Shown here piece after piece: positions 2,449-30,617 of a stretch of 64,000 bases of DNA (positions are counted from its first letter, which is position 1; each line of letters starts with the position of its first letter). Source of the DNA: Eubacteriaceae bacterium (lineage in GTDB: Bacteria > Bacillota > Clostridia > Eubacteriales > Eubacteriaceae); contig JAAYJS010000031.1 of the NCBI GenBank assembly GCA_012522805.1, positions 62,001-126,000 of the forward strand, written 5' to 3'. A program made the translations under genes and the position numbers. The notes under the pieces are model-generated. The model was given only the letters and a program-made list of their open reading frames with translations, had not been told where the DNA came from and made no database searches.

Positions 2449-3078
2449 TTAACCATCGTAGCGCATGCTGTCAAACTTTTCGAGAATCGGGTCGATGGCA
2501 GCGCGTTTGGTTTTCAAACTGACTTTGTTTGCGATGAGTCTGGAGGAGACTTGGGCAATCTCTTCCAATACAACCAAGCCGTTTTCCTTTAAAGTACTTC
2601 CGGTTTCCACAATGTCCACGATGTAATCGGACAACCCTAAAATGGGTGCTAACTCCACAGATCCGTTGAGATAGATGATATCCACGGGTTGTTTTTTTTC
2701 GTTGTAATAATGTTTGGCAATGGTGGGGTATTTGGTGCCCACGACTATTTTTTTATTTTGCGGTATCTGGGCATTCTCCATACCTGCGACACAAATGCGA
2801 CAGCGTCCGATGTTCAAATTGAGCAACTCGTACACCGGTGCGGGGTGCTCCATGAGCACATCTCGCCCGACGATGCCGATATCTGCAACGCCCTTGGCAA
2901 CATAGGTGGGCACATCGGGAGATTTGACCAAAAAGAAGGCGATTCTGCCGGTACTGTCGGTAAAAATAAGCTTGCGACTGTCGTCGCTGTAATCGGGAAA
3001 GGTGTAGCCCACTTCGCCTAACAATGCGATGGCTTTTTTCGCCACTCTTCCTTTGGCCAGAGCTAATTGGATTTGCAT
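2449..3078 (-). CDS. hisG: ATP phosphoribosyltransferase, short catalytic subunit
   Basis: At 209 residues this is the short form of HisG, lacking the C-terminal ACT-like histidine-binding domain, and therefore expected to work as a hetero-octamer with HisZ. It condenses ATP and PRPP in the committed step of histidine synthesis. Visible landmarks include the N-terminal LALAKGR, the GIVGRDVL loop and the PRPP-binding DIVETGSTLKENGL loop near residue 155. Its start lies inside the 3' end of hisZ (16-base overlap), consistent with stoichiometric coexpression of the two subunits. Confidence 0.96.
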   Translation of the reverse strand: MQIQLALAKGRVAKKAIALLGEVGYTFPDYSDDSRKLIFTDSTGRIAFFLVKSPDVPTYVAKGVADIGIVGRDVLMEHPAPVYELLNLNIGRCRICVAGMENAQIPQNKKIVVGTKYPTIAKHYYNEKKQPVDIIYLNGSVELAPILGLSDYIVDIVETGSTLKENGLVVLEEIAQVSSRLIANKVSLKTKRAAIDPILEKFDSMRYDG

Positions 3079-4316
3079 GATGGGTTCTCCTTTTCCGGTA
3101 CTAAGGCGCCGTTTTGATAATGGTGAAATACACCGTCTTTAAGATAGATAAAACGAGCGTTTTCATATAGAATATTGTTTTTCTGGGAGTGGATAAAGGC
3201 TTTAGGTGTCGTGTATAAATCAAACATCTCTGCGCTCTTTCCTTTGCTTCTGAGTTCGGTTGCATATTGGTGAGCCCGGGCCTTTTCATCTCGATGGTAG
3301 AGGATGACCGTGGTGCTGACGGCTTCTTTTTCCAACAACCCTTTTTGATCTAAATAATCTAAGGTTCCCAATAGATCGATACCAAAACCACAAGCCGGCC
3401 GATCGATGCCGAACTGAGCGGACAGGTGGTTGTAGCGGCCACCGCCGATCACCGTTTCGCCCCAGTCGTCCATGTAAGCTTTAAAAATTAAATCCGAATA
3501 ATAATTCATGCGATTGGTAAAGCCTAAATCAAAATATAAATACGGTGTGATTCCCACCGTATCCGTATGGTGGAGCAGCGCTTTGAGATAATCTACCACC
3601 GCTTCCATGTCTTCATTGACGCACAGTTCAGACATTTCGGAGACGATGTCTTTAGGGTCGCCGTAGAGCATGGGCAATGCCATCAGTATTTTTTTAGATT
3701 TTTTAGTCAGCGACAATGGGGCAATAAAATCGTGGATGTCCGCCAAGTTTTTATTTTCAATGAGGCGAAACAATTCCAACCGCGTTTTTTTGCTTAAACT
3801 CAAGGTGTCAAAAAAGTGGTTGATAAACCCCACGTGGCCAATATCCACGTGGATATCCTGAATGCCGTTGACCTTTAAAGATTGTAAGGCGAGCTCTATG
3901 ATTTCGCCGTCGCATTCCGGGCTGTGGCTGCCAAAATACTCGATCCCCATTTGGCTCTCTTCTTTCTTAATGATGTCCGGAGATGAGAAGTTTCGATACA
4001 AATTGGTGTGATAAAAAAATTTAATAATTTCTTTGCGATCTCTGTGGTTGATGGCGGCTGTACGGGTAATAGGAACAGTGGCATCGTGCTTTAAGACCAA
4101 TACCTTTCCCTGATGGTTTACCAATTTAAATAGATCTTCCCGCCGAAAACCTTCTTCATCGCTGTATAAGTCGTAGGATTCAAGGGTCGGCGTCATGACT
4201 TGATGGTAACCGTAACTCTTGTACAGCGTACTCAGCCGCCCCTGTAGGGTTTGCAAATGTTTTAAACCCTGATATTGTATGTTTTCAAAACCTTCTAAGG
4301 TATAACCTGTTGACAT
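3063..4316 (-). CDS. hisZ: ATP phosphoribosyltransferase regulatory subunit (HisRS paralogue)
   Basis: A 417-residue class II aminoacyl-tRNA synthetase-like protein beginning with the characteristic YTLEGFENI...LQGRL start and containing the motif 2-like FYHTNLYRNF near 105 and a glycine-rich VIGGGRYNHLSAQFG near 300. It lacks the anticodon-binding domain of real HisRS and sits directly before short-form hisG, which together identify HisZ. It gives histidine feedback control to the HisG complex. First gene of the leftward operon, with a good promoter upstream. Confidence 0.93.
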   Translation of the reverse strand: MSTGYTLEGFENIQYQGLKHLQTLQGRLSTLYKSYGYHQVMTPTLESYDLYSDEEGFRREDLFKLVNHQGKVLVLKHDATVPITRTAAINHRDRKEIIKFFYHTNLYRNFSSPDIIKKEESQMGIEYFGSHSPECDGEIIELALQSLKVNGIQDIHVDIGHVGFINHFFDTLSLSKKTRLELFRLIENKNLADIHDFIAPLSLTKKSKKILMALPMLYGDPKDIVSEMSELCVNEDMEAVVDYLKALLHHTDTVGITPYLYFDLGFTNRMNYYSDLIFKAYMDDWGETVIGGGRYNHLSAQFGIDRPACGFGIDLLGTLDYLDQKGLLEKEAVSTTVILYHRDEKARAHQYATELRSKGKSAEMFDLYTTPKAFIHSQKNNILYENARFIYLKDGVFHHYQNGALVPEKENPSCKSN

Positions 4317-4357
4317 ATGACCTCCAATTTAATACGTTATCGTAGTAAAGTAAAGAT

Positions 4358-4386
4358 AGTTTATCACTAAATAATTTAAAGGTCAA
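4358..4386 (-). promoter_or_regulatory. Promoter of the his operon
   Basis: On the minus strand TTGACC (4381-4386) and TAAACT (4358-4363) are separated by exactly 17 bases, about 45 bases before the hisZ start. No T-box, leader peptide with His codons or terminator-antiterminator pair is visible between it and the gene. Confidence 0.7.
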
Positions 4387-4450
4387 GGGGTAACTGATCT
4401 TGATTTGAACATAAAATGAATTCAAATTGCCTTTGTTTGGTCGGGAATGA

Positions 4451-4479
4451 TTGTCCATTATATTTGAATAGGTTATAAT
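4451..4479 (+). promoter_or_regulatory. Promoter of the lipoprotein gene
   Basis: TTGTCC (4451-4456), 17-base spacer, TATAAT (4474-4479), about 50 bases before the start of the lipoprotein gene. It diverges from the his promoter. Confidence 0.7.
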
Positions 4480-4530
4480 ATAGAAATAGATCTTGTTAAA
4501 TGTTTAGAATGAATCGAAGAGGAGTCTAGT

Positions 4531-5271
4531 ATGAAAAAAAACAATCTGTGTATTTTTTGTTACGCCAAGGGGATCATAGCCCTCATCCTGGTGTTGGTTA
4601 CAGTGCTGTTATCCAGTTGCGGCGGCAAAGTGGACGAACGCCTTTCCGGTAAATGGATAGCGATTAAAACTTTTGCCAGTGGCGTGACTTTGCCGGCATC
4701 GGAAGTGTATAAAGACGGTTTTACCTTGGAGTTTGTATCCGGTAGTAAAGTCGATTTTACCGTCAATGGCGAAAAGGATGTCGCCAAATGGTCCATCGAT
4801 GGAGACGAGATTACCATAGAAGCCGGTAGCGAAGAATGGAAAGGCACCTTAATCGGAGATTTCATAGAATTTAAAAATGTTTCCAACATGGGTGTTGACA
4901 TTACCTTTGGTAGGGAAGGTACAGATGCCATGGACCCGATCAATACGCTTTCCGAAAATGAAAAGAAATTGGTGGGCACTTGGGTTTCCGAATCGGTGGT
5001 CGACGTGATGGGAACAGAAACGCAAGTGGAAGGCGTAGAAGTTCAAGATGTATTGAAACTGACCTTTCATCCCGATCGTGTTTTGAATATTGTTCACAAA
5101 GGGCAGGAAGTCGGCGATACCAAGTGGGTGCTCATCGAAAATTGGGATGCCCCGGAAGATATCGGCAACTTTAAAATTATGTACGAAGTCCAGGAAGATG
5201 GCAAAATAAAAGCAGATGTCTTTACAGACGATACGTTTTTGTACACCGTAACCTGTGTCCAAGCAGAGTAG
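4531..5271 (+). CDS. Lipoprotein with two lipocalin-like repeats
   Basis: A 246-residue secreted protein with a lipoprotein signal peptide: basic start, hydrophobic stretch 14-27 and lipobox LSSC with the lipidated Cys at residue 30. The mature part falls into two similar halves, each opening with a (L)xGxW element (LSGKW near 38, LVGTW near 149) and followed by alternating beta-strand sequence, as in lipocalin-like domains. It should sit on the outer face of the membrane. The ligand is unknown. It has a clear GAGGAG ribosome site and lies 31 bases upstream of rsmA, possibly cotranscribed. Confidence 0.75.
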   Translation: MKKNNLCIFCYAKGIIALILVLVTVLLSSCGGKVDERLSGKWIAIKTFASGVTLPASEVYKDGFTLEFVSGSKVDFTVNGEKDVAKWSIDGDEITIEAGSEEWKGTLIGDFIEFKNVSNMGVDITFGREGTDAMDPINTLSENEKKLVGTWVSESVVDVMGTETQVEGVEVQDVLKLTFHPDRVLNIVHKGQEVGDTKWVLIENWDAPEDIGNFKIMYEVQEDGKIKADVFTDDTFLYTVTCVQAE

Positions 5272-13021: not shown

Positions 13022-14011
13022 TCAACGGTTGGAGCCAAAACCAAAGTCTCCTCTTAAGGATACCTCCGCGGACATCAAGTTTTCCAGCTGACCGTCGGCT
13101 CTTTCTAAGACCAGGGCGCCGTCATCTCGAATGGCTTTGACCGTGCCGACAATTTTTCTGTCTCCCATGGTGGCCAGCACCTCTTTGCCTAACACCACGG
13201 AGCGTTCTCGGTATTCTGAAAGGAGGGCATGGTCCTGATCTTCCGTCAACAATTCCCGATAGGCTTCTACCAAATCTTGAGCCAAGGGGTTTTTAATGGG
13301 CTGGTAGTGATCCGGAGAAAACAATGCCGCGGCGTGGCTGGCAATATCTTCCGGGAAACCGCCTGCCGGGGGTAGTAAATTGATGCCGACACCCACCACG
13401 ACGGTATCCACCATGCCGTTTTCCATGTTGATGGTCGCCTCCGTTAAAATGCCTGCGACCTTCCCGTGGGATGTATATAAATCGTTGACCCATTTCACAC
13501 CGATGGGTGGCGCACCGTATTTTTCCAAACATCGGGCGGCTAGAACCGCAGCCTTTAAGGTGGTATTCAAACCGACTTGAAAGGAAGGATCCGGTTTTAA
13601 CAAAACGGATACATAAAGCCCCGTTAGTGCAGGAGAATAAAAGGAGCGCCCCATGCGTCCCTTACCTGCACTTTGGTGATCCGCCAATACGGCACTTCCG
13701 TGGAGGGCACCCGCCCGCGCCAAGTTTTTTAACTGGTCGTTGGTGGAGTCCACGGTGGGGTAGACCCATAGAGGGGCGGACTCCACAAGGGTCTTTTTAA
13801 AATAAGAAGCTTGTAAGGGATCGTAGGTAGTGGGCAGTCGGTAGCCCTTGTTGGGCAGTGCACGAATGGGCACGCCCTCTTTTTGTAGGGTTTTTACGGC
13901 CGCCCAGACGGCGTTGCGACTGACACCCAAATGGTCGGCCATAGTTTGTCCGGAAAGCTCTTCTTCTCTATGATTTAAAAGGGCCCTCAGCACCTTGTCT
14001 TTTGTTTTCAT
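13022..14011 (-). CDS. birA: Biotin-[acetyl-CoA-carboxylase] ligase and biotin repressor
   Basis: A 329-residue bifunctional BirA with an N-terminal winged helix (residues about 15-45, SGQTMADHLGVSRNAVWAAVK) and the ligase domain carrying STNDQLK, the adenylate-binding GKGRMGRSF near 115 and KWVNDLY near 175, followed by a C-terminal SH3-like part. It attaches biotin to carrier proteins and, because the HTH is present, can probably repress biotin genes. No biotin gene is in the window. The start has AGGAGAATAGG upstream. Confidence 0.94.
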   Translation of the reverse strand: MKTKDKVLRALLNHREEELSGQTMADHLGVSRNAVWAAVKTLQKEGVPIRALPNKGYRLPTTYDPLQASYFKKTLVESAPLWVYPTVDSTNDQLKNLARAGALHGSAVLADHQSAGKGRMGRSFYSPALTGLYVSVLLKPDPSFQVGLNTTLKAAVLAARCLEKYGAPPIGVKWVNDLYTSHGKVAGILTEATINMENGMVDTVVVGVGINLLPPAGGFPEDIASHAAALFSPDHYQPIKNPLAQDLVEAYRELLTEDQDHALLSEYRERSVVLGKEVLATMGDRKIVGTVKAIRDDGALVLERADGQLENLMSAEVSLRGDFGFGSNR

Positions 14012-14153
14012 CCTATTCTCCTATTTCCATCAGAAAGTCGAGTTGACACATCTCGGTTATGGCAGAACTTGCGCATGGTGTTTATTATACTGATTATCCC
14101 ATAAAACAAAAAAAATATCTTCGTCAAAAATAGTCCTTTTGTGGAACAGCGAC

Positions 14154-14181
14154 TTGAAATAATTTGTAAATAGGTTAAAAT
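14154..14181 (+). promoter_or_regulatory. Promoter of pyrG
   Basis: TTGAAA (14154-14159), 16-base spacer, TAAAAT (14176-14181). A leader of about 75 bases follows. Confidence 0.6.
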
Positions 14182-14203
14182 AAAGGTAGATGAAGTTGAT
14201 AGG

Positions 14204-15878
<1,675 letters not shown>

Positions 15879-16109
15879 AGTGGGACCACACGTCGGAAAA
15901 TCGAAGGAGTAAAATAGACGCCAATCGAAGGGCAAGGAGAAATTTTCTGAAAAGCCGGACAGCTTAATACCGACTGTCAACGAAAAGATGACAGTCGGAT
16001 AGAGTTTGAATAGAACAACATAGAGTTGACAGGATCGATCCAAGTATTTTTGTATCCGGTAAAAAAATAATTCAATCATCATAGAAATAGACATAGGTTC
16101 ACTAACAGC

Positions 16110-16153
16110 AAACCCATGGATGGTCAGCTCATCCACGGGTTTTACTATTTTTT
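16110..16153 (+). terminator. Terminator downstream of pyrG
   Basis: AAACCCATGGATG (16110-16122) pairs with CATCCACGGGTTT (16130-16142) with a single mismatch, seven-base loop, then TTTTACTATTTTTT. Confidence 0.75.
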
Positions 16154-16303
16154 GCAATTTAAATACGTCCTTCGCAACGTCCGGTGTCAGAAACGGGTTA
16201 TCCTATTTCGGTTTCACACATGGAGAACAGAGTCATAAACGTTATTCTTTTCCCTTCAAACAGTTATATCTGTTCGTAGAGGCAACTCCATTCTGGCGGT
16301 AAA

Positions 16304-16423
16304 ATGCAGAGCTGTCCGCTTTGTGTAGGTAAGGTATCCAATTTACAGGATTATTTGGAAACAAAGTGCGCGAAAGGGAGCCTCTACAGAGATGAAGATT
16401 TTACCTGTCAATGTAAAAAATAG
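16304..16423 (+). CDS. Possible 39-residue Cys-rich (zinc-ribbon-like) protein
   Basis: ATG-initiated frame reading MQSCPLCVGKVSN and ending DFTCQCKK, with a CxxC near the start, a central Cys and a CxC at the end, a pattern that could bind zinc. Ribosome site is weak (GGCGGT). It could equally be a decayed remnant. I do not recognise a family. Confidence 0.25.
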   Translation: MQSCPLCVGKVSNLQDYLETKCAKGSLYRDEDFTCQCKK

Positions 16424-16523
16424 ATTAAACTTGTAAAAAATCGAGTCTTTCGTTTCGTAACATATTATTGGCAAAAAAAATTTTCATTTGGAATTGACAC
16501 AATATGTGGACATGTGGAAAGAA

Positions 16524-16711
16524 TGTGGATAACTCTTCAATATTTAAAACAAAAGCCGAAAATGTTCAATAAAATTGTGGATAAGGGCGGTGGAAACTGT
16601 GGATAATGTGGATAACTTATCCAAAATGCCAGAAATCGCTAAAATTGTGGCTTTAATTCTGTGAAGAAATGTGGATAACTCTTGGGATAAACCCAAAACG
16701 AATGTGTATAA
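16524..16711 (+). other. Cluster of DnaA boxes, candidate replication origin or DnaA-binding control region
   Basis: Five exact TGTGGATAA boxes (16524-16532, 16576-16584, 16598-16606, 16607-16615, 16670-16678), one TGTGTATAA (16703-16711), all in the same orientation, and one inverted near-match TTATCCAAA (16617-16625). Two boxes are directly tandem. All six same-strand boxes fit the TTATNCACA consensus (complement). An AT-rich segment follows at 16711-16860. The neighbour is NAD synthetase rather than dnaA, so it is either an oriC separated from dnaA or a DnaA-controlled or DnaA-titrating site. Confidence 0.75.
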
Positions 16712-16732
16712 TTTTTAACAAGAGCTTTTTTC

Positions 16733-16761
16733 TTGTGGGAGAAAAGCCAAAGGGTTATAAT
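16733..16761 (+). promoter_or_regulatory. Promoter of the NAD synthetase-serS unit
   Basis: TTGTGG (16733-16738), 17-base spacer, TATAAT (16756-16761), immediately downstream of the DnaA-box cluster, so DnaA bound there could influence it. Confidence 0.65.
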
Positions 16762-16895
16762 AGAATCGTTACAATTCTAGATATAGCGTAACAAAACAAA
16801 AAAACAGACACAGACAGAATTGTTTTTTAAAATAAATAAGATAAAAATTTGTGATATGGTGAAGTGTAGAAGAATTTGATGGAAGAGAGGATGAA

Positions 16896-20898
<4,003 letters not shown>

Positions 20899-20909
20899 AG
20901 AGGAGCACT

Positions 20910-21347
20910 ATGAAAATCGCACTACCCTATGACCACGATCAAGTCCATTCGGATTTTGGAAAAGCACAGGAATTTGTCGTCTATCACTTTCAATTTGGGC
21001 GCATCGCAGGAAAAGAACTTGTGGAGGCGCCGGGCAAGGGCTACCAAGGCAATATCGATGCCCTCATCGATGCCAACGCCGTTACCATTATCTGCCATCG
21101 TATTGAAGAGGAAGCCTTAGAGGTGTTGTACGACGAAGGCTTTGAAGTTTTCACAAATAAGCAGGGTCAAACCGACGGATTGGTGACCACCTATATGGCG
21201 CAAAAATTGCCCCACGGCGACACGCCCTTTACCCTGCCGGAACCCAGTTGTGGAGAACATTGCAACCACCATCACGGCGAAGGACAACAATGTGGGCACC
21301 ACCATGGCGACGGCCACAATTGCGAACATCACAGCGAAGAACACTAA
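20910..21347 (+). CDS. NifX/NifB-type (dinitrogenase iron-molybdenum cofactor family) protein with His/Cys-rich tail
   Basis: A 145-residue protein. Residues 1-108 match the small NifX-like cofactor-binding fold (MKIALPYD, HFGxAxxFxxY-like HSDFGKAQEFVVY, NIDALIDANAVTIICHRI). Residues 112-145 form an unusual tail with four Cys and eleven His in GEHCNHHHGEG and QQCGHHHGDG style repeats, likely to bind nickel, zinc or iron. No nitrogenase gene is near, so a metal storage or chaperone role is more likely. AGAGGAG precedes the ATG. A terminator follows. Confidence 0.75.
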   Translation: MKIALPYDHDQVHSDFGKAQEFVVYHFQFGRIAGKELVEAPGKGYQGNIDALIDANAVTIICHRIEEEALEVLYDEGFEVFTNKQGQTDGLVTTYMAQKLPHGDTPFTLPEPSCGEHCNHHHGEGQQCGHHHGDGHNCEHHSEEH

Positions 21348-21410
21348 GGATGCTGTGCCGGTAAAGAGCAATAAAAGCACAAATAGTTTAAAAAATAAAT
21401 ACAAAAAATA

Positions 21411-21462
21411 ACGACTCGATACTGTCCGCACTCATAAGTACGAACGGCATCGGGTCGTTTTT
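21411..21462 (+). terminator. Terminator after the NifX-like gene
   Basis: ACGACTCGAT (21411-21420) pairs with ATCGGGTCGT (21449-21458, one G-U) and is followed by TTTTT. Confidence 0.65.
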
Positions 21463-21540
21463 ATGGATAGAAAGAGGATAGACACATCATTGTTTTATAA
21501 AAAAAAGTGATTGTATTTGTACGGGCCGAGGACGAAAAAT

Positions 21541-22293
21541 CTATTTTGTTGCGGACAGTAAGAAAGGACGTGCGGTGCGGTATAAAACTTTTTCTTGCGA
21601 CGTGTAAATCTGCTCACCGATATGTTTATCGACAAAGACTTCGGAAAAGCCGATCTTTGTTAAAATAGCGGTGTCCCATTCCGGGCGGTCCACACGGCTT
21701 AAGGGTAAGTCCATGGCAAGTTGCTCCATGGTTTTGGCCATTTCTTTTGTAACCGGATCGTTATAACCCATTTTTTCAACGAGTTGTCTGTCATGGTGAT
21801 ACAGGTTTTTTGTATCGCTTTGGTAAAGGTAGCGGTACCAATTGGCGTCAAAGTTCAGTAGAAGGCCGCCGGGTTTTAAGACCCGATACCATTCCCGGTA
21901 GGCGGTGTGGGGGTCCGGCAAATTCCAAGTTAAGTTTCTGCTGACAGCCACATCAAAAGTATTGTCCTCAAAATTTAAGGATTGGGCATTCATCGGCATA
22001 AAATTGGCACACAGTCGGTGTTCGATTAAATTGTGAGTGGCTTTTACCAACATTTCACCGGTCAGATCAATCCCCGTTACCTGGTGTCCCATTGCAGCAA
22101 TCAGCATAGTAAAAAAACCCGGTCCACAACCGATATCCAAAACGTTTAACCCACTCCCTTTGGGAAGGTGATGGATAAAAATATCGGTGTAAGCTTTATT
22201 TTGCCATTGGCTGTATTCTCGATTGTTGGAAATGGAATAGGTTGTCGAACGTCGAGTCCAGTAGTTTTGCACTTCTGTAAAGATGTTTTGCAT
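21541..22293 (-). CDS. Class I SAM-dependent methyltransferase
   Basis: A 250-residue methyltransferase with motif I VLDIGCGPGFFTML (about 51-64), acidic motif II GIDLTGEML, motif IV VSRNLTWNLPDP (about 137) and VLKPGG. The substrate is not evident; the SRNLTWNLPDP block occurs in a group of anaerobe methyltransferases whose substrates I cannot name. It is a single gene whose leader contains a terminator hairpin, suggesting attenuation. Start has AAAGGAGG seven bases upstream. Confidence 0.8.
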   Translation of the reverse strand: MQNIFTEVQNYWTRRSTTYSISNNREYSQWQNKAYTDIFIHHLPKGSGLNVLDIGCGPGFFTMLIAAMGHQVTGIDLTGEMLVKATHNLIEHRLCANFMPMNAQSLNFEDNTFDVAVSRNLTWNLPDPHTAYREWYRVLKPGGLLLNFDANWYRYLYQSDTKNLYHHDRQLVEKMGYNDPVTKEMAKTMEQLAMDLPLSRVDRPEWDTAILTKIGFSEVFVDKHIGEQIYTSQEKVLYRTARPFLLSATK

Positions 22294-22309
22294 AGTGCCT
22301 CCTTTATGT

Positions 22310-22357
22310 ATAAAAAAAGCGATACGACTTGCCGTTTCTACGGCAAGTGTATCGCTT
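22310..22357 (-). terminator. Leader terminator (attenuator) before the methyltransferase gene
   Basis: An 18-bp stem with one bulged base (AAGCGATAC-G-ACTTGCCGT against ACGGCAAGTGTATCGCTT, loop of four). Read on the minus strand it runs into TTTTTTTA. It ends only 17 bases before the methyltransferase start and no gene lies upstream on this strand, so it fits a regulated leader. A weak TTGACT/GAAAAT promoter lies about 45 bases upstream. Confidence 0.65.
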
Positions 22358-22479
22358 CAGCATTGCTCATTAAATTTATATTTATTTTCTATCAGAAAAA
22401 GGAAAAAGTCAAGAAAAAAACTGAATCATGCGAAAAATCAAGGTGATGTGTTTAATTTTAAGAAGGAAAAAGGGTCCTA

Positions 22480-22488
22480 TGTTATAAT
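22480..22488 (+). promoter_or_regulatory. Extended -10 promoter of the surface protein gene
   Basis: TGTTATAAT, that is TGn before a perfect TATAAT, with no recognisable -35. It lies 28 bases before the start codon. Confidence 0.45.
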
Positions 22489-22515
22489 GACGATGATTTT
22501 TATGGGAGAAGAACT

Positions 22516-23658
22516 ATGAAAAACAAAGTTAATTCAACGGTAGTACCGGTGATAGCCGCTATCATTTTGATACTCACGGTGGGTATCGGTCCGGTATTTG
22601 CAGATACAAAAAAGATGGATCCAATCTCCGAAAACAAAGGGGAGATTCCGGTTACCTTTATGTTTTATGACAAACTCGTCTACAAAACCTCGGTTTATGG
22701 TACGCCCGGAGAAACAACCACCAAGCGGGAAATATACGACTATGTTAAAAAGAATAGTGCACACCATCTGGCAGGGTATACTTTTGCCAATGCCGCCAAT
22801 GGGGGGCAACCGGTACAATTTCCTTCGGCATCTACCCGTATCCCGGATAGTAAGGCTATTCAGATTATGGTGGTTTTAGACGGGACACCCCTCGCCTCCC
22901 AAAGCCGTATCGACTTGATTTTTTACACCACCCACGATGAAAATTCCGATACGTCCCCAGACGCATTGGAAGATTCCAAAAGAAAAACCAAGGTGATTGA
23001 CCGTCAAACCGTAAAAGGAACCCCCGGAGAAGCTCTGGCAGAAGATGTAGGTGCGTGGTTGGTGGCGCAAGCCTATACCATCATTGATGGAGATAAATAC
23101 GAAGTTGAGACAATAGAAGGCACCCAAATTTTTCCTGAGTCCGACAGTCAAGATAGCGAAGCCTTGCATGTCCATTTGAAACGCATAGGCCCCGCCAGCG
23201 AAGAGGAATTATTGCGCAAAGAATACAAGCGGCTGAACAGTACCGCTGTTCTGTACTTGGTGGACCAGAAAGACAAGTCTAACCCCTTGGGCGGGGTAAC
23301 TGTACTCGGAGAATCGGGAAAACCCATCGATACGGTCAAACTCAGCCAAGAGTTGAAGCGGGATTTGTCCTATCGAAAAGTACTCATGGATTACGAATAT
23401 ATCGAGACTTTGGACAGTCAACATCTTCCCATCGATCAGAAAAAAATTGTCTACCCTCCACCCAACGAAGAAGGGGTCGTTTATGTGATGGTGTTTAAAA
23501 ACAAAGGGTTTCATCGCCCGAATCAGGAAGTCGGCACAATTTTATGGCCCACCCCCTTTACCGGAGATAGAAGCCCCGTAGCAACCGGTGTGGTGCTCAG
23601 CTCCATCAGTTTGATCCTCTTAGCGCTATTTCACAATAGAAAAAACAAAACGTCATAA
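22516..23658 (+). CDS. Secreted cell-surface protein with C-terminal anchor
   Basis: A 380-residue exported protein: signal peptide 1-29 ending VFA, a body with two similar segments that each contain a GTPGE motif (VYGTPGETTTKREIYDYV near 60 and VKGTPGEALAEDVGAWLV near 168), resembling MucBP/internalin-associated beta domains, and a C-terminal anchor of TPFTGD (346), hydrophobic helix and a basic tail. TPFTG resembles a sortase LPxTG signal with the first Leu replaced. Probable adhesin or matrix protein; ligand unknown. Convergent to another surface protein. Confidence 0.65.
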   Translation: MKNKVNSTVVPVIAAIILILTVGIGPVFADTKKMDPISENKGEIPVTFMFYDKLVYKTSVYGTPGETTTKREIYDYVKKNSAHHLAGYTFANAANGGQPVQFPSASTRIPDSKAIQIMVVLDGTPLASQSRIDLIFYTTHDENSDTSPDALEDSKRKTKVIDRQTVKGTPGEALAEDVGAWLVAQAYTIIDGDKYEVETIEGTQIFPESDSQDSEALHVHLKRIGPASEEELLRKEYKRLNSTAVLYLVDQKDKSNPLGGVTVLGESGKPIDTVKLSQELKRDLSYRKVLMDYEYIETLDSQHLPIDQKKIVYPPPNEEGVVYVMVFKNKGFHRPNQEVGTILWPTPFTGDRSPVATGVVLSSISLILLALFHNRKNKTS

Positions 23659-23686
23659 CATAAGATACCAAATAGAATAAAACACC

Positions 23687-23720
23687 ATGTAGCAGTTGGA
23701 TACGACTGCTACATTTTTTG
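23687..23720 (+). terminator. Terminator after the surface protein gene
   Basis: ATGTAGCAGT (23687-23696) pairs exactly with ACTGCTACAT (23705-23714), followed by a T-run. Confidence 0.85.
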
Positions 23721-23899
23721 TGTCAATATATCGGGATATTCTACGATGCAGTGCCTTGTGTTGATTTGATCGGAACAAGTCAAAAGAGAAAAAGAATAGG
23801 GTTGCGGGTAGATGGTATTTTGTGCTCAAAGGCGATCTAAGTTGAAATAAAAGATACCTAAAAAAACAGTTTGAAAGATTTGCCATAAATCGAAAAACA

Positions 23900-23936
23900 A
23901 AAACGGGATGTTCAGAAACATCCCGTTTTGTTTTTT
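23900..23936. terminator. Bidirectional terminator before the beta-helix protein's 3' end
   Basis: AAACGGGATGTT (23901-23912) and AACATCCCGTTT (23917-23928) with a CAGA loop; T-runs follow on both strands. It directly abuts the stop of the large leftward surface protein. Confidence 0.88.
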
Positions 23937-26670
23937 ATTGATTCATTTTTCTTTGATAGAAGAGCAATCCGATGCCGGCCATGGACAACGCACCTAAGAT
24001 CGACCACAACAGTATATTGGTGGTATCCCCGGAAAAGATGCTTTTATGGGGCGGTTTAGGTTTGTCTTTTTGTGGTTTCGGCGGCTCCGGTTTGTCGCTC
24101 CGTGGCTTCGGCGGTTCCGGTTGCTCCGGTGTTTCCGGTGGGTTTTCTTTGTTGTGAACAGTAAAACCCGTTTTTTCTTCGCCGGTCACGGTGGCCGTAT
24201 AGCCTTCGATGGCTTCTTCCTGTACGGTATAGACGATGGGTTCACCGGTTTCGGCGTTGATGAGCGGCATGTCTTCAAAGAGATGTTGCCAATGATGGCT
24301 GTCGTCAAGTACGGCGGTTGCTACAATTTTGCCATCGGCCAGTAAATGGATGGTCACTTCTTCGGTTTTCGTACCCTCCCAAGTTTTTGTGACGGGAATA
24401 TCTATTTTAACCATGGCGTTGGTCACGTCGATTTCAAAAAGAATATTGGCGCCATCTTGGCCGATTTTTTTAATTTCAGAGACCTGAGATTCCCATTGGT
24501 CGGAATCAACCTCTTTCACATAGATTAAATCTTCGATGGGAATGCCCCCGATGGTTGCGGGCAAATCGTATAGCGTTTCCGTATAGCTGTTGCCTTCATT
24601 TAAAATGACGGTCTCAAGCAGATAATCCGAAGAGACCCCGGCTATCTCCTTGATCCTGACATCCACGCTGATTTCTTTGGGGAAGGTGCCTTCTTCCCAA
24701 ATCTTGTTGATTTTTAAATTTTTGAGGGGGTTGTGCTCTTGAGGTTTGTGTCCGAAAATGATGTTTCCGTTGGATCCGATTCCTCCGCCTTTGCTGGCTG
24801 TATTGCCTTCTATGAATAGGGTGGACAGCTCTCTGGAAGGCTGCAAATCGTCACCGGAAAGAATTGCTTTTAAAGCCAATTCTTCTTTGATGTTGTTGAC
24901 ATCCTCAACGATGGTGCGATGACCGTCTTTATAGCGATGGCCTTTGAAATCTTCATAATAGGTTATTTTTTCCCCGGTGGGGCTTCTGGTGGGCAAGGTG
25001 ACGGTGGCATAATCGATGGATTTCAGTTCATTAAAGAAATCGTCGCCGGTGTTGAGAGCGTCGTTTTCTGCCAATACGGCACCGCTTTCTGCATAAAAAA
25101 TGGCATCTCCCGTGGGGCAAAACCAGACGCCACCTCCGGACCCATCGGTTAAGTTTTCTTTTCTCTCTATGAGTTGGGCATGGTTGTCCACGATATAAGC
25201 ATTTTCGATATGTAGGACGTAGGGGACGGCGGTAACATAAATGCCGCCGCCTTGACTGCCGGCAACATTGTTTTGAATTTTTCCGGCAAGCAGTTTGGCA
25301 TTATTGGTAGAAATATTGATACCACCACCACTTCTGTCAGCCTTGTTGTTGACAACCGTGCCGCCTTCCATGACAAAACCGCCAAGGTATTTTTGGTTCC
25401 AATCCTCGATGGATACACTACCCGTTTTATTGTCACTCCAAACACCATCGACATACCAGTCCGATACAAAGATACCGCCGCCCTGATAAGCGCGGTTGGA
25501 GTCAATTAATAGGGTGGAGTCTGCCGGGATTTGAATATCCACATGACCGTGCCCTGAAATAGCACCGCCCCCAACACCGTGGTTGTTTCTGATGGTGCCA
25601 CCATAAAAAGTTGCGGTAGCCAAAGCTTGTTCTGCTAATTTGGAGGGATCGGTTTGTCTTCTATTGTATGCGTAGGGGGAGGGTTCGCCTATTAAAATGG
25701 CACCGCCGTACCCTTCGTTGTTGTGAATGTCGCCACCATTCATGACGAAATCTGCACCACTATAAACAAATACAGCGCCGGCTCCCGGTGAATCCGACCA
25801 TACAAAATCGTCGTGATAAGGGTGATAACTGGACCCTATATTATTGCGGATGGTACCGCCGTTCATCACCATCCGGGCACCATTTTCAAGAAAAAAAGCT
25901 CCGGAGGAATAGGGGCATTTGGTGTAGTCGTTGTTTTCAACGATACCGGCATTCAATTCGATTGTGGCGCCGGGTCCGTCGGCAGTAATGGGCGAACGAT
26001 GGAGTCCGCTGCCGCCTTTATCGTTCTTAAAGGTCGCGCCATCAATGATGAAGGAACCCTTTGTTAAAATAAAGCTGGTCGCATCTCGGGCTGTTTGCAT
26101 TTCACCATCAAAGATCAGTCCGTTCTCGGTGCTTTCCAAGGTTAAACCACCGGTGTTTTCAATGCGAATCATGGTTCGATTAAAGGACGGGTCTTTTTTA
26201 AAGACGACTCCACCATTGCTCTTAAATGTGATATTTTTATCGGCGATGATTAAGGACTCGGTGAATAAATACTCTCCCGGTATCAGCGTTATCACATCGC
26301 CATCTGCAGCATTGGCCACTTGCTCTTTTAAGGTTTCAAATAAAGGAGCAGTGGACATGACCTTGGATTCTCTGATGGGCTCCGGTGTCTGAGAAGGATC
26401 CAATATCGGTGTCGGGTTCCCTTCGCCTTGATCGCTTTTCGATTCGTTGGCGACGGAGGGATCTGTATTTTCAACGGTGTCTTCTTCTAGAAGAGCATTC
26501 GGGTTTTCTTGCATCGGTACATCTTGTAGTTGTCGGGCATGATCTGACGCTATAAATGGTGCCTCCTCTCGAGCCGTGACAACGCTAAAATTGCCAGTGC
26601 TCCCCATTAATGTCAGTGTCATGATCACCGTCAATAGCCATGTCAAAACGATTTTGTTATTAGTCTTCAT
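23935..26670 (-). CDS. Large beta-helix surface protein with Cna-B-like domains and sortase-like anchor
   Basis: A 911-residue exported protein. Order: signal peptide (1-33), Glu/Ser/Pro-rich linker to about 110, a right-handed parallel beta-helix (about 120-640) with repeated GGTIRNN, GGAI and GGGIFVSD turns typical of pectate-lyase-like adhesins, two Cna-B-type domains (about 655-755 and 765-840, second opening VTKTWEGTKTEEVTIHL), a Pro/Lys/Glu-rich wall-spanning stretch (845-878) and an anchor SIFSGD, hydrophobic helix, basic tail. The anchor lacks a canonical LPxTG. Probable adhesin. It is the largest gene in the window. Confidence 0.82.
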   Translation of the reverse strand: MKTNNKIVLTWLLTVIMTLTLMGSTGNFSVVTAREEAPFIASDHARQLQDVPMQENPNALLEEDTVENTDPSVANESKSDQGEGNPTPILDPSQTPEPIRESKVMSTAPLFETLKEQVANAADGDVITLIPGEYLFTESLIIADKNITFKSNGGVVFKKDPSFNRTMIRIENTGGLTLESTENGLIFDGEMQTARDATSFILTKGSFIIDGATFKNDKGGSGLHRSPITADGPGATIELNAGIVENNDYTKCPYSSGAFFLENGARMVMNGGTIRNNIGSSYHPYHDDFVWSDSPGAGAVFVYSGADFVMNGGDIHNNEGYGGAILIGEPSPYAYNRRQTDPSKLAEQALATATFYGGTIRNNHGVGGGAISGHGHVDIQIPADSTLLIDSNRAYQGGGIFVSDWYVDGVWSDNKTGSVSIEDWNQKYLGGFVMEGGTVVNNKADRSGGGINISTNNAKLLAGKIQNNVAGSQGGGIYVTAVPYVLHIENAYIVDNHAQLIERKENLTDGSGGGVWFCPTGDAIFYAESGAVLAENDALNTGDDFFNELKSIDYATVTLPTRSPTGEKITYYEDFKGHRYKDGHRTIVEDVNNIKEELALKAILSGDDLQPSRELSTLFIEGNTASKGGGIGSNGNIIFGHKPQEHNPLKNLKINKIWEEGTFPKEISVDVRIKEIAGVSSDYLLETVILNEGNSYTETLYDLPATIGGIPIEDLIYVKEVDSDQWESQVSEIKKIGQDGANILFEIDVTNAMVKIDIPVTKTWEGTKTEEVTIHLLADGKIVATAVLDDSHHWQHLFEDMPLINAETGEPIVYTVQEEAIEGYTATVTGEEKTGFTVHNKENPPETPEQPEPPKPRSDKPEPPKPQKDKPKPPHKSIFSGDTTNILLWSILGALSMAGIGLLFYQRKMNQ

Positions 26671-26922
26671 TGTTACCTCTTCATGTTGCTATGATATAAA
26701 ATAGATCCAAATTTTTATATAAAATTTGAATTTCTAAGCATTCTAACATGGTTTTCAAATAAGGTAAAGATGAAAATGCATTAAATTACATAAAATTGAA
26801 AATAATTACAAAAAAACTTAACTATTTGAAGAAAAGTACTCTTGGATAAAAGAATTAAATCCGGAAGGAAAGCTGATATTTTTGATAGATAGCATCGCTT
26901 TCTCCCCGGATTATTGTTGATA
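26671..26922. other. Gap upstream of the beta-helix gene
   Basis: AT-rich sequence with the upstream region of the leftward surface protein gene and, at its right end, the nrdG terminator. No gene visible. Confidence 0.6.
26858..26912 (-). terminator. Probable terminator of nrdDG
   Basis: AATCCGG (26858-26864) pairs with CCGGATT (26906-26912) with an inner GGAAAGC/GCTTTC pairing; a T-rich stretch follows on the minus strand just after the nrdG stop. Confidence 0.5.
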
Positions 26923-27420
26923 TTAGATGTTTAAAAGTGAGATTTCCCCTTTTAGTCGGGTTTGGTGTAAATCGATGAGCCGTTGGTTTTCAGAACCTCT
27001 AAAAGCCAAACGCAAGTTTTTCTCTGCCTCCAGATAGGGGCCGTCGACCAAAACATCCACCCATTGAAGGACATCCATTACCTCTTTTTGCAAGTGAAGG
27101 TCGTTGTAGACATAACCGGTGTACAACCAAATGCTTTTACGACTTTCCTTTTTAATCCGCTTTAAAAAGGAAGCGAGCTCCGTCAAGTTTTGCTGCAAGG
27201 GTTCGCCGCCTAACAGAGTGAGGCCAGCGATGATGGGCTTGTCCAGAAGGGTCAAAATACTTTGTATTTGTGTTTCGGTGCAGGGTTCTCCGTAGTTGAA
27301 GTCCCAATACTCCCGGTTAAAGCAATGAGGGCAAGCGTGGCGACAGCCACTGACAAAAACACTCACCCGTACACCCGGACCATTGGCCACGTCCATGGGG
27401 CGTATTTGTGCGATATTCAT
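26923..27420 (-). CDS. nrdG: Anaerobic ribonucleotide reductase activating protein
   Basis: A 165-residue radical SAM enzyme with the CRHACPHC cluster motif (CxxxCxxC, about residues 26-33) and a TLLGGEPL SAM-binding stretch. It generates the glycyl radical on NrdD using SAM and an electron donor. It starts immediately after the nrdD stop, so the two are one operon. Normal family length; no missing residues seen. Confidence 0.95.
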   Translation of the reverse strand: MNIAQIRPMDVANGPGVRVSVFVSGCRHACPHCFNREYWDFNYGEPCTETQIQSILTLLDKPIIAGLTLLGGEPLQQNLTELASFLKRIKKESRKSIWLYTGYVYNDLHLQKEVMDVLQWVDVLVDGPYLEAEKNLRLAFRGSENQRLIDLHQTRLKGEISLLNI

Positions 27421-29616
27421 TTATATATGCAAAACCCTTTCGCTGATTTCCTTTGTTTTGCCGTGATTCCAGTAGTTTTCGCCCAAGTAACCACAGGTAC
27501 GGCGCACGACAGTCATGGCTTCTTCGTCTTGGTTATGGCATTGGGGGCATTCCCAATGGCCTTCTTTATTAACGACAATTTCACCGTCAAAACCGCATTG
27601 GTGACAATAGTCGCTTTTGGTATTGAACTCTGCATAGGTAATGTGGTCGTATATATAGGTCATCATGGTTAAAATAGCCGATAAATTGTTTTGCATATTG
27701 GGGATTTCCACATAGGAGATGCACCCCCCGGTGGAGATGTTTTGAAACTGAGCCTCAAAATCAAATTTAGAAAAGGCGTCGATTTCTTCCCCGACAAAAA
27801 CATGGTAGCTGTTGGTATAGTATTCTTTATCGGTAATTTGGGGCACCTTGCCGAAGATGGCCCGGTCTTTGCGGCAGAAGGTGTAAACGGTGCTTTCCGC
27901 CGGTGTGCCGTAAAAAGCAAAACCCAGATTGGTTTCCTTTTTCCAAGTGTCCACCGTCTTCTTCAGGTAGTTCATGACTTTTAAGGCAAAGGCTTGCCCC
28001 TTGGGAGCGGTGTGGGATTCGCCGATAACCGCCAGAGTTGCTTCGTAAAGACCCACATACCCTAAGGAGATGGTCGCATAACCGCCGGTCAACAATTTGT
28101 CGATGGTTTCGCCTTTTTCCAGTCTGGCGATACAACCGTTTTGCCAGTGAATGGGACTGACATCGCTGGTGGTGCCCTTCAGGAGTTTGTATTTGATGAG
28201 CAGTGCCTCTTTGCAAATGTCCAAGCGTTTGTCCAGAAGGTCAAAGAAAACTTTTTCCTTGTCTTCTTGCCGGGAATGCATGGCGATGAGACCAATCTGC
28301 GGCAAATTCAAGGAAACAACGCCCATGTTAAATCGGCCATCAAATTGGTATTCGCCCTTTTCGTTTTTCCAAGGGGAAAGGAAGGAGCGACACCCCATGG
28401 GGCTATAGACATTGCCTTCGTAGATGTCACGCATACGTTTTGCGGAGATGTAGTCCGGGTACATGCGCTTGGCCGTACACTTTGCCGCCAACTCCGTTAA
28501 ATAGTAGTAGGGTGCGTCTTCATGAATATTGTGCTCGTCCAAAACGTAAACCAGTTTTGGGAAAGCCGGTGTGATGTACACATCTTTTTCGTTTTTAACC
28601 CCTTCTAAGCGTTGTTTTAAAATTTCTTCGGTAATCATGGCAGCCTCTTTGGCATACGCATCATCCGGTTCAAAAAACATAAACAAGGTGACAAAGGGGC
28701 TTTGACCATTGGTGGTCATCAATGTATTGATTTGATATTGGATGGTTTGAACCCCATCTTTCACTTCTTTGCGGGTGCGCGCCCATGCGACCTCCGAGGC
28801 TTTTTCTTCATCAATGGGCATCTGATAGATTTCTTGTTGTTCCTGTAAGGCAATATCGTAATACTTTTCATAGGAGCGGCGCACATAGGGGGCTAAGATT
28901 CGGTCCACACCATTGATACTTTGACCACCGAATTGGGAGCTGGCCACTTGAGCGATGATCTGTGTCATGACTGTACAGGCTACTTGAAAACTCTTGGGCG
29001 TGTCGATTTTCTTACCGTTGATGATGGTGCCGTTTTGAAACATATCCTCTAAATTGATGAGACAGCAATTGAAGATGTGTTGGATATAATAATCCATATC
29101 GTGGATATGGATCGCACCATCGTCGTGGGCTTGCAAAATATCCGCGGGGATCAGCATTCTTCTGGTAATATCCTTCGATACCTCTCCGGCGATCAAGTCT
29201 CTCTGTGTTGAGGACAATTTAGCATTTTTATTGGAGTTTTCTTTAGCGACCAAGTCGTTTTTATTGGAAATTAAATCCAAAATAGAACCGTCGGTGGTGT
29301 TGAGTTGGCGTTTAAAGCTCTGGACCGACTTATAACCTTCGTAGGCTTTAGCAGTGGAAGGGTTGTTATGTCGGATCAATTCGTAGTAAACCTTATCTTC
29401 GATTTCGTAGATGGTCATGGGTTGATCCCGAAGGGTGGCAAATTTTTCGATATCATCGGCGATGGCTTCCGCCATCAAGGGCACGTAAACCCCGGTACTG
29501 GAATGCATGGCTTTTTCTATGGCGATGACAATTTTGGAAGCGTTAAAGGGTACCGTGGTACCGTCCCGCTTAATGACACAAAGCGAATCTTTGGAAAATT
29601 GGATTTGAGCAGACAT
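27421..29616 (-). CDS. nrdD: Anaerobic (class III) ribonucleoside-triphosphate reductase
   Basis: A 731-residue oxygen-sensitive reductase making deoxyribonucleotides. An N-terminal ATP-cone (residues about 10-100, CVIKRDGTTVPFNASKI) provides allosteric control, the catalytic core includes GCRSFLSPW with the active-site Cys, a C-terminal zinc site is CHQCG and CPQCH, and the glycyl radical sits in RRTCGYLGENYW. All key elements are intact. Transcribed with nrdG from a promoter carrying NrdR and DnaA sites. Confidence 0.97.
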   Translation of the reverse strand: MSAQIQFSKDSLCVIKRDGTTVPFNASKIVIAIEKAMHSSTGVYVPLMAEAIADDIEKFATLRDQPMTIYEIEDKVYYELIRHNNPSTAKAYEGYKSVQSFKRQLNTTDGSILDLISNKNDLVAKENSNKNAKLSSTQRDLIAGEVSKDITRRMLIPADILQAHDDGAIHIHDMDYYIQHIFNCCLINLEDMFQNGTIINGKKIDTPKSFQVACTVMTQIIAQVASSQFGGQSINGVDRILAPYVRRSYEKYYDIALQEQQEIYQMPIDEEKASEVAWARTRKEVKDGVQTIQYQINTLMTTNGQSPFVTLFMFFEPDDAYAKEAAMITEEILKQRLEGVKNEKDVYITPAFPKLVYVLDEHNIHEDAPYYYLTELAAKCTAKRMYPDYISAKRMRDIYEGNVYSPMGCRSFLSPWKNEKGEYQFDGRFNMGVVSLNLPQIGLIAMHSRQEDKEKVFFDLLDKRLDICKEALLIKYKLLKGTTSDVSPIHWQNGCIARLEKGETIDKLLTGGYATISLGYVGLYEATLAVIGESHTAPKGQAFALKVMNYLKKTVDTWKKETNLGFAFYGTPAESTVYTFCRKDRAIFGKVPQITDKEYYTNSYHVFVGEEIDAFSKFDFEAQFQNISTGGCISYVEIPNMQNNLSAILTMMTYIYDHITYAEFNTKSDYCHQCGFDGEIVVNKEGHWECPQCHNQDEEAMTVVRRTCGYLGENYWNHGKTKEISERVLHI

Positions 29617-29696
29617 AAAAACCCTCTCTCATAATATTAGGCTTGTGATACGAACATATTTCGAAAAGATGTTTCGACTTTTGAACAAGCATTATC

Positions 29697-29725
29697 ATTA
29701 TATGTGGATAATAAGAAGTTGTCAA
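29697..29725 (-). promoter_or_regulatory. Promoter of nrdDG with a DnaA box in the spacer
   Basis: Minus-strand TTGACA (29720-29725), 17-base spacer, TATAAT (29697-29702). The spacer ends with TTATCCACA (29703-29711), an exact DnaA box directly touching the -10. About 80 bases before the nrdD start. Confidence 0.85.
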
Positions 29726-29741
29726 ACACTATATATAGTGT
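29726..29741. promoter_or_regulatory. NrdR box
   Basis: ACACTATATATAGTGT, a perfect palindrome matching the NrdR consensus, directly upstream of the -35. A weaker match CATTATATGT (29696-29705) overlaps the -10 with a centre-to-centre distance of 33 bp, the usual tandem spacing for NrdR repression. Confidence 0.85.
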
Positions 29742-30101
29742 ACAAATCTTTATGCCACAAGTAGCAATCGTTATTTGTTGCAACAAATAGGCCTAAAAAT
29801 CGATTTGTATGAAGAAGGGCTGAGGAAAGGCTGCCCAACCCCATTAAACGCCTTTTTGACAGGTGTGCATCTAGTGGTGTGGGAATGCCAAACAATATAT
29901 GTAGATCAAAATACGAAGATATTTTTTTGTCCATCTGCAATAGAAATTGGATTCATGAAAAAATAGCCGCCGATTGAGGTATTGAAAGCCCCTTATCAAG
30001 ATCCATAAACTGATGAATGGTAAAGATAGATACAATTGGAGCCTCAATTGTTGTATAATGAAATAGAGCAAAAAACAGCAATGATGTAAAGGGTGAAGGA
30101 T
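29742..30101. other. Gap upstream of an unknown gene
   Basis: AT-rich stretch without a convincing gene; short frames on both strands lack ribosome sites. The upstream region of the following rightward gene lies near 30040-30090. Confidence 0.5.
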
Positions 30102-30617
30102 ATGGATGATCTGATAAAAATTAAAATAGATATTAAAAATGCATTGAACATTCAAGGTGACAGCAACAATAAAGAAGTCATCGTCCATTATTTGAAAAAT
30201 TGTTGGTGTATCGGAAGGTCACCGTCAATAGAAAAGGATGAATTGACCGGCGAAAGCCTGAGCATGGGTTTAGAAATGATGACAGACGGTAAATATGTAT
30301 GGACCAACACCCTGAGCTACTATGTGGAGAAATACGATATCGTCTTACCTAAAGATTTTGTGGAACACATTTTCATGACAAAAGAAGTCATGAGAAAGTT
30401 AAAGCGCTATGCCCAAAAGAGCGGATGCTTGTATATCAAGCATATCAAACATTGGAGAGGTTTTGAAGTTTACAAGCCCATTGCGGTTGCCCACGAACAG
30501 TTAAGAAGGGAAATCGCCGAGTATCTTTTAGTGAGAGGCGCATCGGCCAGGGTAGCAACCCGGATGGAAAGCAGGCTGTTTTTAAAGGAATCAGAGAATA
30601 GATATTTTCGAGTGTAA
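30102..30617 (+). CDS. Conserved-looking protein of unknown function
   Basis: A 171-residue soluble protein, no signal or membrane segment, with a Cys pair in KNCWCIGRSP (about 35), a YVWTNTLSYYVEKYDI stretch near 70 and a basic helical C-terminus. I do not recognise the family. Start uncertain: ATG 30102 is used; GTG 30093 is in frame but has no spaced ribosome site. A single gene followed by a strong terminator. Confidence 0.6.
   Translation: MDDLIKIKIDIKNALNIQGDSNNKEVIVHYLKNCWCIGRSPSIEKDELTGESLSMGLEMMTDGKYVWTNTLSYYVEKYDIVLPKDFVEHIFMTKEVMRKLKRYAQKSGCLYIKHIKHWRGFEVYKPIAVAHEQLRREIAEYLLVRGASARVATRMESRLFLKESENRYFRV

What the first reader, a model, noticed from the sequence alone, without database searches (positions are those of the whole stretch)
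16524..16711. oriC-like cluster of consensus DnaA boxes beside NAD synthetase, not beside dnaA
Six same-orientation boxes fitting TTATNCACA plus one inverted near-match lie within 190 bases, two of them in direct tandem, followed by an AT-rich segment and a promoter. So many exact 9-mers in so short a stretch is far beyond chance. serS is often near the origin in Firmicutes. It may be the chromosomal origin relocated from dnaA, one half of a bipartite origin, or a DnaA titration or control site for the nadE-serS unit.
Basis: partly seen in the sequence, partly recalled or inferred. Interest (0 to 1): 0.75.

Follow-up and report, generated by a model that had tools for sequence, protein, structure and literature searches.

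The report
Conserved DnaA-box array outside the origin
Between two housekeeping genes lies a tight row of binding sites for DnaA, the protein that starts chromosome copying; it is not the origin, but its exact spacing has been kept across three bacterial families even where the neighbouring gene differs, so it probably helps to control DnaA.

Summary
In detail: six exact TTATNCACA boxes on the minus strand at 16524-16711, two abutting, between pyrG and nadE. The origin reading is refuted: a canonical dnaA-dnaN locus with boxes on both sides of dnaA lies on another contig, GC skew flips there, and skew never changes sign along the 156-kb contig that holds the array.

The array is not random. 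A core of three same-orientation boxes at 0/+22/+31 bp, often with a fourth at -51, recurs downstream of pyrG in 29 genomes of the family and in 6 genomes of two sister families. In the sister families the next gene is rho; in this family it is nadE. Relocated rho has no array, and nadE outside the family has none. The geometry belongs to the chromosomal site, not to the gene it precedes.

Best explanation: an extra-oriC DnaA-binding control locus (DnaA-box cluster, datA-like in action), working by cooperative DnaA binding and sequestration, 13-17% of the chromosome from dnaA in seven complete genomes. In this family it also abuts a sigma-A-like nadE promoter, so DnaA control of nadE is the main, compatible rival. 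Function is inferred; DnaA binding was not tested.

The parts
16576..16615 (-). Conserved core: three same-orientation boxes at relative 0, +22, +31 (TTATCCACA at 16576, 16598, 16607; the last two abut)
   Evidence: 0 mismatches of 24 in this genome; 31 of 35 genomes of three families have at most 3 mismatches; no shuffle of 200 reaches the observed value in 34 of 35
16524..16532 (-). Box TTATCCACA at relative -52
   Evidence: A box at -51/-52 is shared with genera g5, g9, g4 and with family f5
16670..16678 (-). Box TTATCCACA at relative +94
   Evidence: Box at +95/+96 also in g5 and in one of two g9 genomes
16703..16711 (-). Box TTATACACA at relative +127, 30 bp before the predicted -35 element
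   Evidence: Box at +130 in g5 and g9, also about 30 bp before -35
16617..16625 (+). Inverted near-match TTATCCAAA
   Evidence: Present; not conserved at this offset, so probably incidental
16660..16668 (-). Weak box TTCTTCACA (1 mismatch)
   Evidence: conservation not established
16494..16509 (+). Edge motif TTGACACAATATGTGG, resembling one NrdR box
   Evidence: TTGACACAAGATRTRG with up to 1 mismatch occurs at this site in 8 of 11 family genomes and at only one other place in all 11
16733..16761 (+). Predicted nadE promoter TTGTGG-17-TATAAT
   Evidence: Same TTGNNN-17-TATAAT just after the array in most family genomes; below the generic scan's threshold
14265..15878 (+). pyrG (CTP synthase), the constant neighbour of the array in f1, f2 and f5
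   Evidence: Pfam CTP_synth_N 5.5e-131
16896..18800 (+). nadE (glutamine-type NAD synthetase), downstream gene in family f1 only
   Evidence: Pfam NAD_synthase and CN_hydrolase

Best explanation
An extra-oriC DnaA-box array that sits at the 3' side of pyrG in families f1, f2 and f5 of one order. Shown: the boxes, their fixed relative geometry, their presence at pyrG with either of two downstream genes, and that the site is not the origin. Inferred: DnaA binds the same-orientation boxes cooperatively; because the site lies at an intermediate distance from oriC it is copied early in each round, and the doubled array then sequesters DnaA (or alters its activity) and so damps re-initiation, as proposed for the B. 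subtilis DnaA-box clusters and E. coli datA. In family f1 the bound DnaA also lies just upstream of the nadE promoter and may modulate it.
For: Not origin: dnaA locus with boxes on both sides, skew flip there, none here. Geometry 0/+22/+31 in 35 genomes of three families. Downstream gene differs: nadE in f1, rho in f5 and f2, array at pyrG in both. rho elsewhere in f1 has no exact box upstream in 12 of 13 genomes; nadE outside f1 has none. Footprint in 16 g2 species: elements 0.915 against 0.710 conserved. Distance from dnaA 12.8-17.0% of the chromosome in seven complete genomes, SD 1.3 against 3.4-7.4 for five control genes. Precedent: removing six extra-oriC clusters in B. subtilis gives early initiation (PMC5295017; PMC13220808).
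Against: No binding or phenotype data. In own, g5 and g9 the distances to the nadE promoter are also kept within 1-3 bp, which fits promoter control. G021 has the site about 6.5% from dnaA (positions). g7, f3 and f4 lack the array at pyrG, so it is dispensable or replaced there. The distance comparison covers only three genera.
Confidence: 0.55

Rival explanations
1. DnaA acts as a transcription factor for the downstream gene: boxes just upstream of the -35 element tie nadE (and, in sister families, rho) expression to the initiator; NAD is needed by the NAD-dependent DNA ligase.
For: TTGNNN-17-TATAAT lies directly after the array in most f1 genomes, with an imperfect -35; the last boxes are about 30 and 64 bp before -35 in own, g5 and g9. 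In G004 the array and promoter stay together although nadE begins about 300 bp further downstream. DnaA controls sda in B. subtilis from such a cluster (PMC5295017).
Against: The downstream gene is rho in f2 and f5, and rho elsewhere in f1 has no boxes. Inner geometry is shared across families while box-to-promoter distance varies in f5.
Confidence: 0.3
2. The site is the chromosomal origin, or half of a bipartite origin.
For: Many consensus boxes with neighbouring AT-rich DNA.
Against: Canonical dnaA-dnaN box clusters elsewhere, skew flip there, none here, in this genome and in complete relatives.
Confidence: 0.01
3. A secondary, conditional origin or the relic of one.
For: Origin-like box density.
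Against: No local skew disturbance. The DnaA-trio scan found nothing, but it also missed the true oriC, so it is uninformative.
Confidence: 0.05
4. A neutral leftover without present function.
For: Absent from pyrG in some lineages (g7, f3, f4).
Against: Boxes are far more conserved than the DNA between them, and the geometry spans three families.
Confidence: 0.04

Closest known systems
Bacillus subtilis extra-oriC DnaA-box clusters (DBCs)
   Same: Intergenic groups of DnaA boxes outside oriC in a Firmicute (4-11 predicted sites in the six strongest regions, PMC4447404); removing all six gives early initiation (PMC5295017).
   Different: B. subtilis has six at other gene pairs (such as ywlB/ywlC, yqeG/sda, gcp/ydiF); here one dominant array at pyrG with a geometry shared across families.
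Escherichia coli datA
   Same: A non-coding chromosomal locus with several high-affinity DnaA boxes, negative for initiation (PMC5295017).
   Different: datA needs IHF and promotes ATP hydrolysis on DnaA; no cofactor or activity is known here and no sequence relation was tested.
DnaA-regulated promoters such as B. subtilis sda
   Same: Boxes upstream of a promoter; DnaA controls sda transcription (PMC5295017).
   Different: Here the downstream gene is not constant (rho or nadE).

Membership tests
Extra-oriC DnaA-box cluster (DBC) | Several DnaA boxes in a short non-coding stretch, above chance | tested here: met
   Six exact boxes in 188 bp, P about 2e-16
Extra-oriC DnaA-box cluster (DBC) | Lies outside the origin | tested here: met
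   dnaA locus and skew flip on another contig
Extra-oriC DnaA-box cluster (DBC) | Bound by DnaA in vivo or in vitro | not testable with these tools
   Needs ChIP or footprinting
Extra-oriC DnaA-box cluster (DBC) | Affects initiation timing when removed | not testable with these tools
   Needs a deletion strain
Chromosomal origin (oriC) | GC-skew sign change at the site | tested here: not met
   Positive in every 10-kb block of the contig; flip at dnaA instead
Chromosomal origin (oriC) | Adjacent to dnaA/dnaN or another replication gene | tested here: not met
   Neighbours are pyrG and nadE
Chromosomal origin (oriC) | Unwinding element with DnaA-trios | tested here: inconclusive
   No hit, but the scan also missed the true oriC
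datA | IHF site and DnaA-ATP hydrolysis | not tested
   Biochemical; IHF motif not searched
NrdR operator (edge motif) | Match to the published core of one box | tested here: met
   CAATATGTGG here and CAAGATATAG in relatives fit C.[AT].A[AT].[AT].G (expression from PMC12051234); such single matches are common by chance (1.4 per 450 bp)
NrdR operator (edge motif) | A pair of boxes 14-17 or 24-27 bp apart | tested here: not met
   No pair involving the motif in this genome; in 25 f1 upstream regions only G002 has one; pairs found at nrdD in five relatives

The most novel reading that the evidence does not exclude
The array is a dedicated DnaA-activity control element of one Firmicute order, working through a fixed nucleoprotein geometry (boxes at -51/0/+22/+31) plus, in family f1, a partner protein at the TTGACACAAGATRTRG motif that is nearly unique to this site: a functional counterpart of datA or DARS that has not been described in this lineage.
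Probability: 0.2. Interest if true: 0.8.

Novelty: new member of a known kind. Interest (0 to 1): 0.6.

Why it matters
Whether Firmicutes use chromosomal DnaA-binding loci to time replication is open: in B. [quoted passage not shown] One dominant cluster with a fixed geometry, kept at one site beside different downstream genes, is a clean target for that question. If the transcription reading is right instead, it links the initiator to NAD synthesis.

Tried and rejected
Origin readings: rejected by the dnaA locus and skew. nadE-specific regulation as the sole function: demoted when the array was found before rho in sister families and was absent at rho in f1. NrdR operator: one box-like match but no pair. 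DnaA-trio scan: uninformative, its positive control failed. Known RNA near the site: no Rfam match in 14000-30500. Named relatives from genome contigs were mostly Bacteroidales without boxes upstream of nadE. Literature: no held paper joins DnaA boxes with pyrG and rho, and the five joining 'DnaA box' with nadE look unrelated from their titles and abstracts; the B. subtilis DBC paper itself is not held.

Full report
OBSERVATION. Five TTATCCACA and one TTATACACA lie on the minus strand between 16524 and 16711, the pair at 16598/16607 abuts, and an inverted near-match is at 16617. The genome (2.02 Mb, 47 contigs) has 80 exact TTATNCACA; only two places have a cluster of them, this one and the dnaA locus. 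Chance is excluded (Poisson P about 2e-16). The flanking genes are pyrG (14265-15878) and nadE (16896-18800), followed by serS.

NOT THE ORIGIN. dnaA is on contig C46, with three exact boxes upstream and two between dnaA and dnaN, the usual bipartite layout. GC skew is negative over the 96 kb before dnaA and positive after it; the contig with the array (C16, 156 kb) is positive in every 10-kb block. In complete relative G022 the sampled skew changes sign at dnaA and not at nadE; in G017 nadE lies inside a positive region.

CONSERVED IN THE FAMILY. Relatives come without names. nadE proteins are only about 41-48% identical to this one, yet seven genera (g1-g6, g9) have a row of mostly same-orientation boxes upstream of nadE. 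In 16 species of g2 the boxes, edge motif and promoter hexamers are much more conserved than the DNA between them (0.915 against 0.710; Mann-Whitney p 3e-18). pyrG-array-nadE is a constant block while genes further out change. In genus g7 the boxes are gone and in G006 the pyrG coding end runs up to the nadE start.

NOT TIED TO nadE. The turning point was to look at pyrG outside the family. In five f5 genomes and one f2 genome, where nadE lies elsewhere without boxes, a box cluster lies just downstream of pyrG, before rho (rho identity from the Rho_RNA_bind family). The inner geometry is the same: boxes at 0, +22 and +31, often one at -51. A search of 391 genomes of the class with the core as a pattern found it beside pyrG in f1, f2 and f5; the remaining matches were elsewhere, one at a dnaA-dnaN origin. 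In f1, rho is elsewhere, and in 12 of 13 genomes it has no exact box in the 1500 bases before its RNA-binding domain. So the array stays at pyrG while the downstream gene differs. That rho was the ancestral neighbour is an inference from two families against one.

HOW IT PROBABLY WORKS. A geometry that persists with different downstream genes points to a function of the site itself: cooperative DnaA binding that holds or modifies DnaA (inference). Its distance from dnaA is 12.8-17.0% of the chromosome in seven complete genomes of three genera, with less scatter than five control genes (SD 1.3 against 3.4-7.4); near-complete G021 is at about 6.5% (from positions), so this is suggestive only. 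A site at that distance is copied early, so its boxes double soon after initiation, which would damp re-initiation. The B. subtilis clusters are the precedent. The rival is promoter control: most f1 genomes have TTGNNN-17-TATAAT right after the array, and own, g9 and g5 share box-to-promoter distances of about 30 and 64 bp. In f5 the distance from the last box to the rho promoter varies. Both functions can hold. Neither binding nor effect was tested.

EDGE MOTIF. TTGACACAAGATRTRG marks the pyrG-side edge of the array in most f1 genera, about 28-31 bp before a box (read from the sequences). With one mismatch allowed it occurs at this site in 8 of 11 genomes and only once elsewhere, in G001, before a gene whose sequence looks like an anaerobic ribonucleotide reductase activator. 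It resembles one NrdR box, and NrdR is encoded in all 11 genomes, but there is no partner box. Its binder is unknown.

NOVELTY. The kind (a DnaA-box cluster outside oriC) is known. A member anchored at pyrG with geometry kept across three families was not found in the papers searched; the library is incomplete, so this does not prove absence.

Noticed in passing
window 27421-29616 (-), upstream about 29640-29760: nrdD (class III ribonucleotide reductase): its promoter has a perfect NrdR box ACACTATATATAGTGT and a consensus DnaA box (29703-29711) lying between TTGACA and TATAAT. Two g5 relatives also have a DnaA box upstream of nrdD.
   Followed up: partly
window 16494-16509: Edge motif TTGACACAAGATRTRG, nearly unique to the array site in each genome; binder unknown; second copy at the nadE side in G002 and G021.
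   Followed up: partly
L232, L233, L234, L235 (g2) and L238, L239 (g5), about positions 2560-4140: A second extra-oriC DnaA-box cluster in g2 and g5, upstream of a small methyltransferase-domain gene and near primosome genes (DnaB_2 family and an AAA helicase-loader-like gene). In G009, G023 and G035 it lies on the opposite replichore from the pyrG array at a similar distance from dnaA. Not seen near the equivalent gene in this genome (L245).
   Followed up: partly
L236 and L237, about 3900-5180: A further small box cluster in two g2 genomes (G023, G035); in G023 it lies between a 5'-nucleotidase gene and a tocopherol-cyclase-like gene.
   Followed up: no
L279: In f2 genome G041 the same core pattern lies outside pyrG, near a gene that looks like a V-type ATPase subunit D: possibly a relocated array.
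   Followed up: no
L144 (G006): pyrG of a g7 genome appears interrupted near its 3' end by a stretch that looks like a group II intron end.
   Followed up: no
window 15879-16480: About 600 bases of extra non-coding DNA between pyrG and the array, absent from most relatives; no Rfam match.
   Followed up: no
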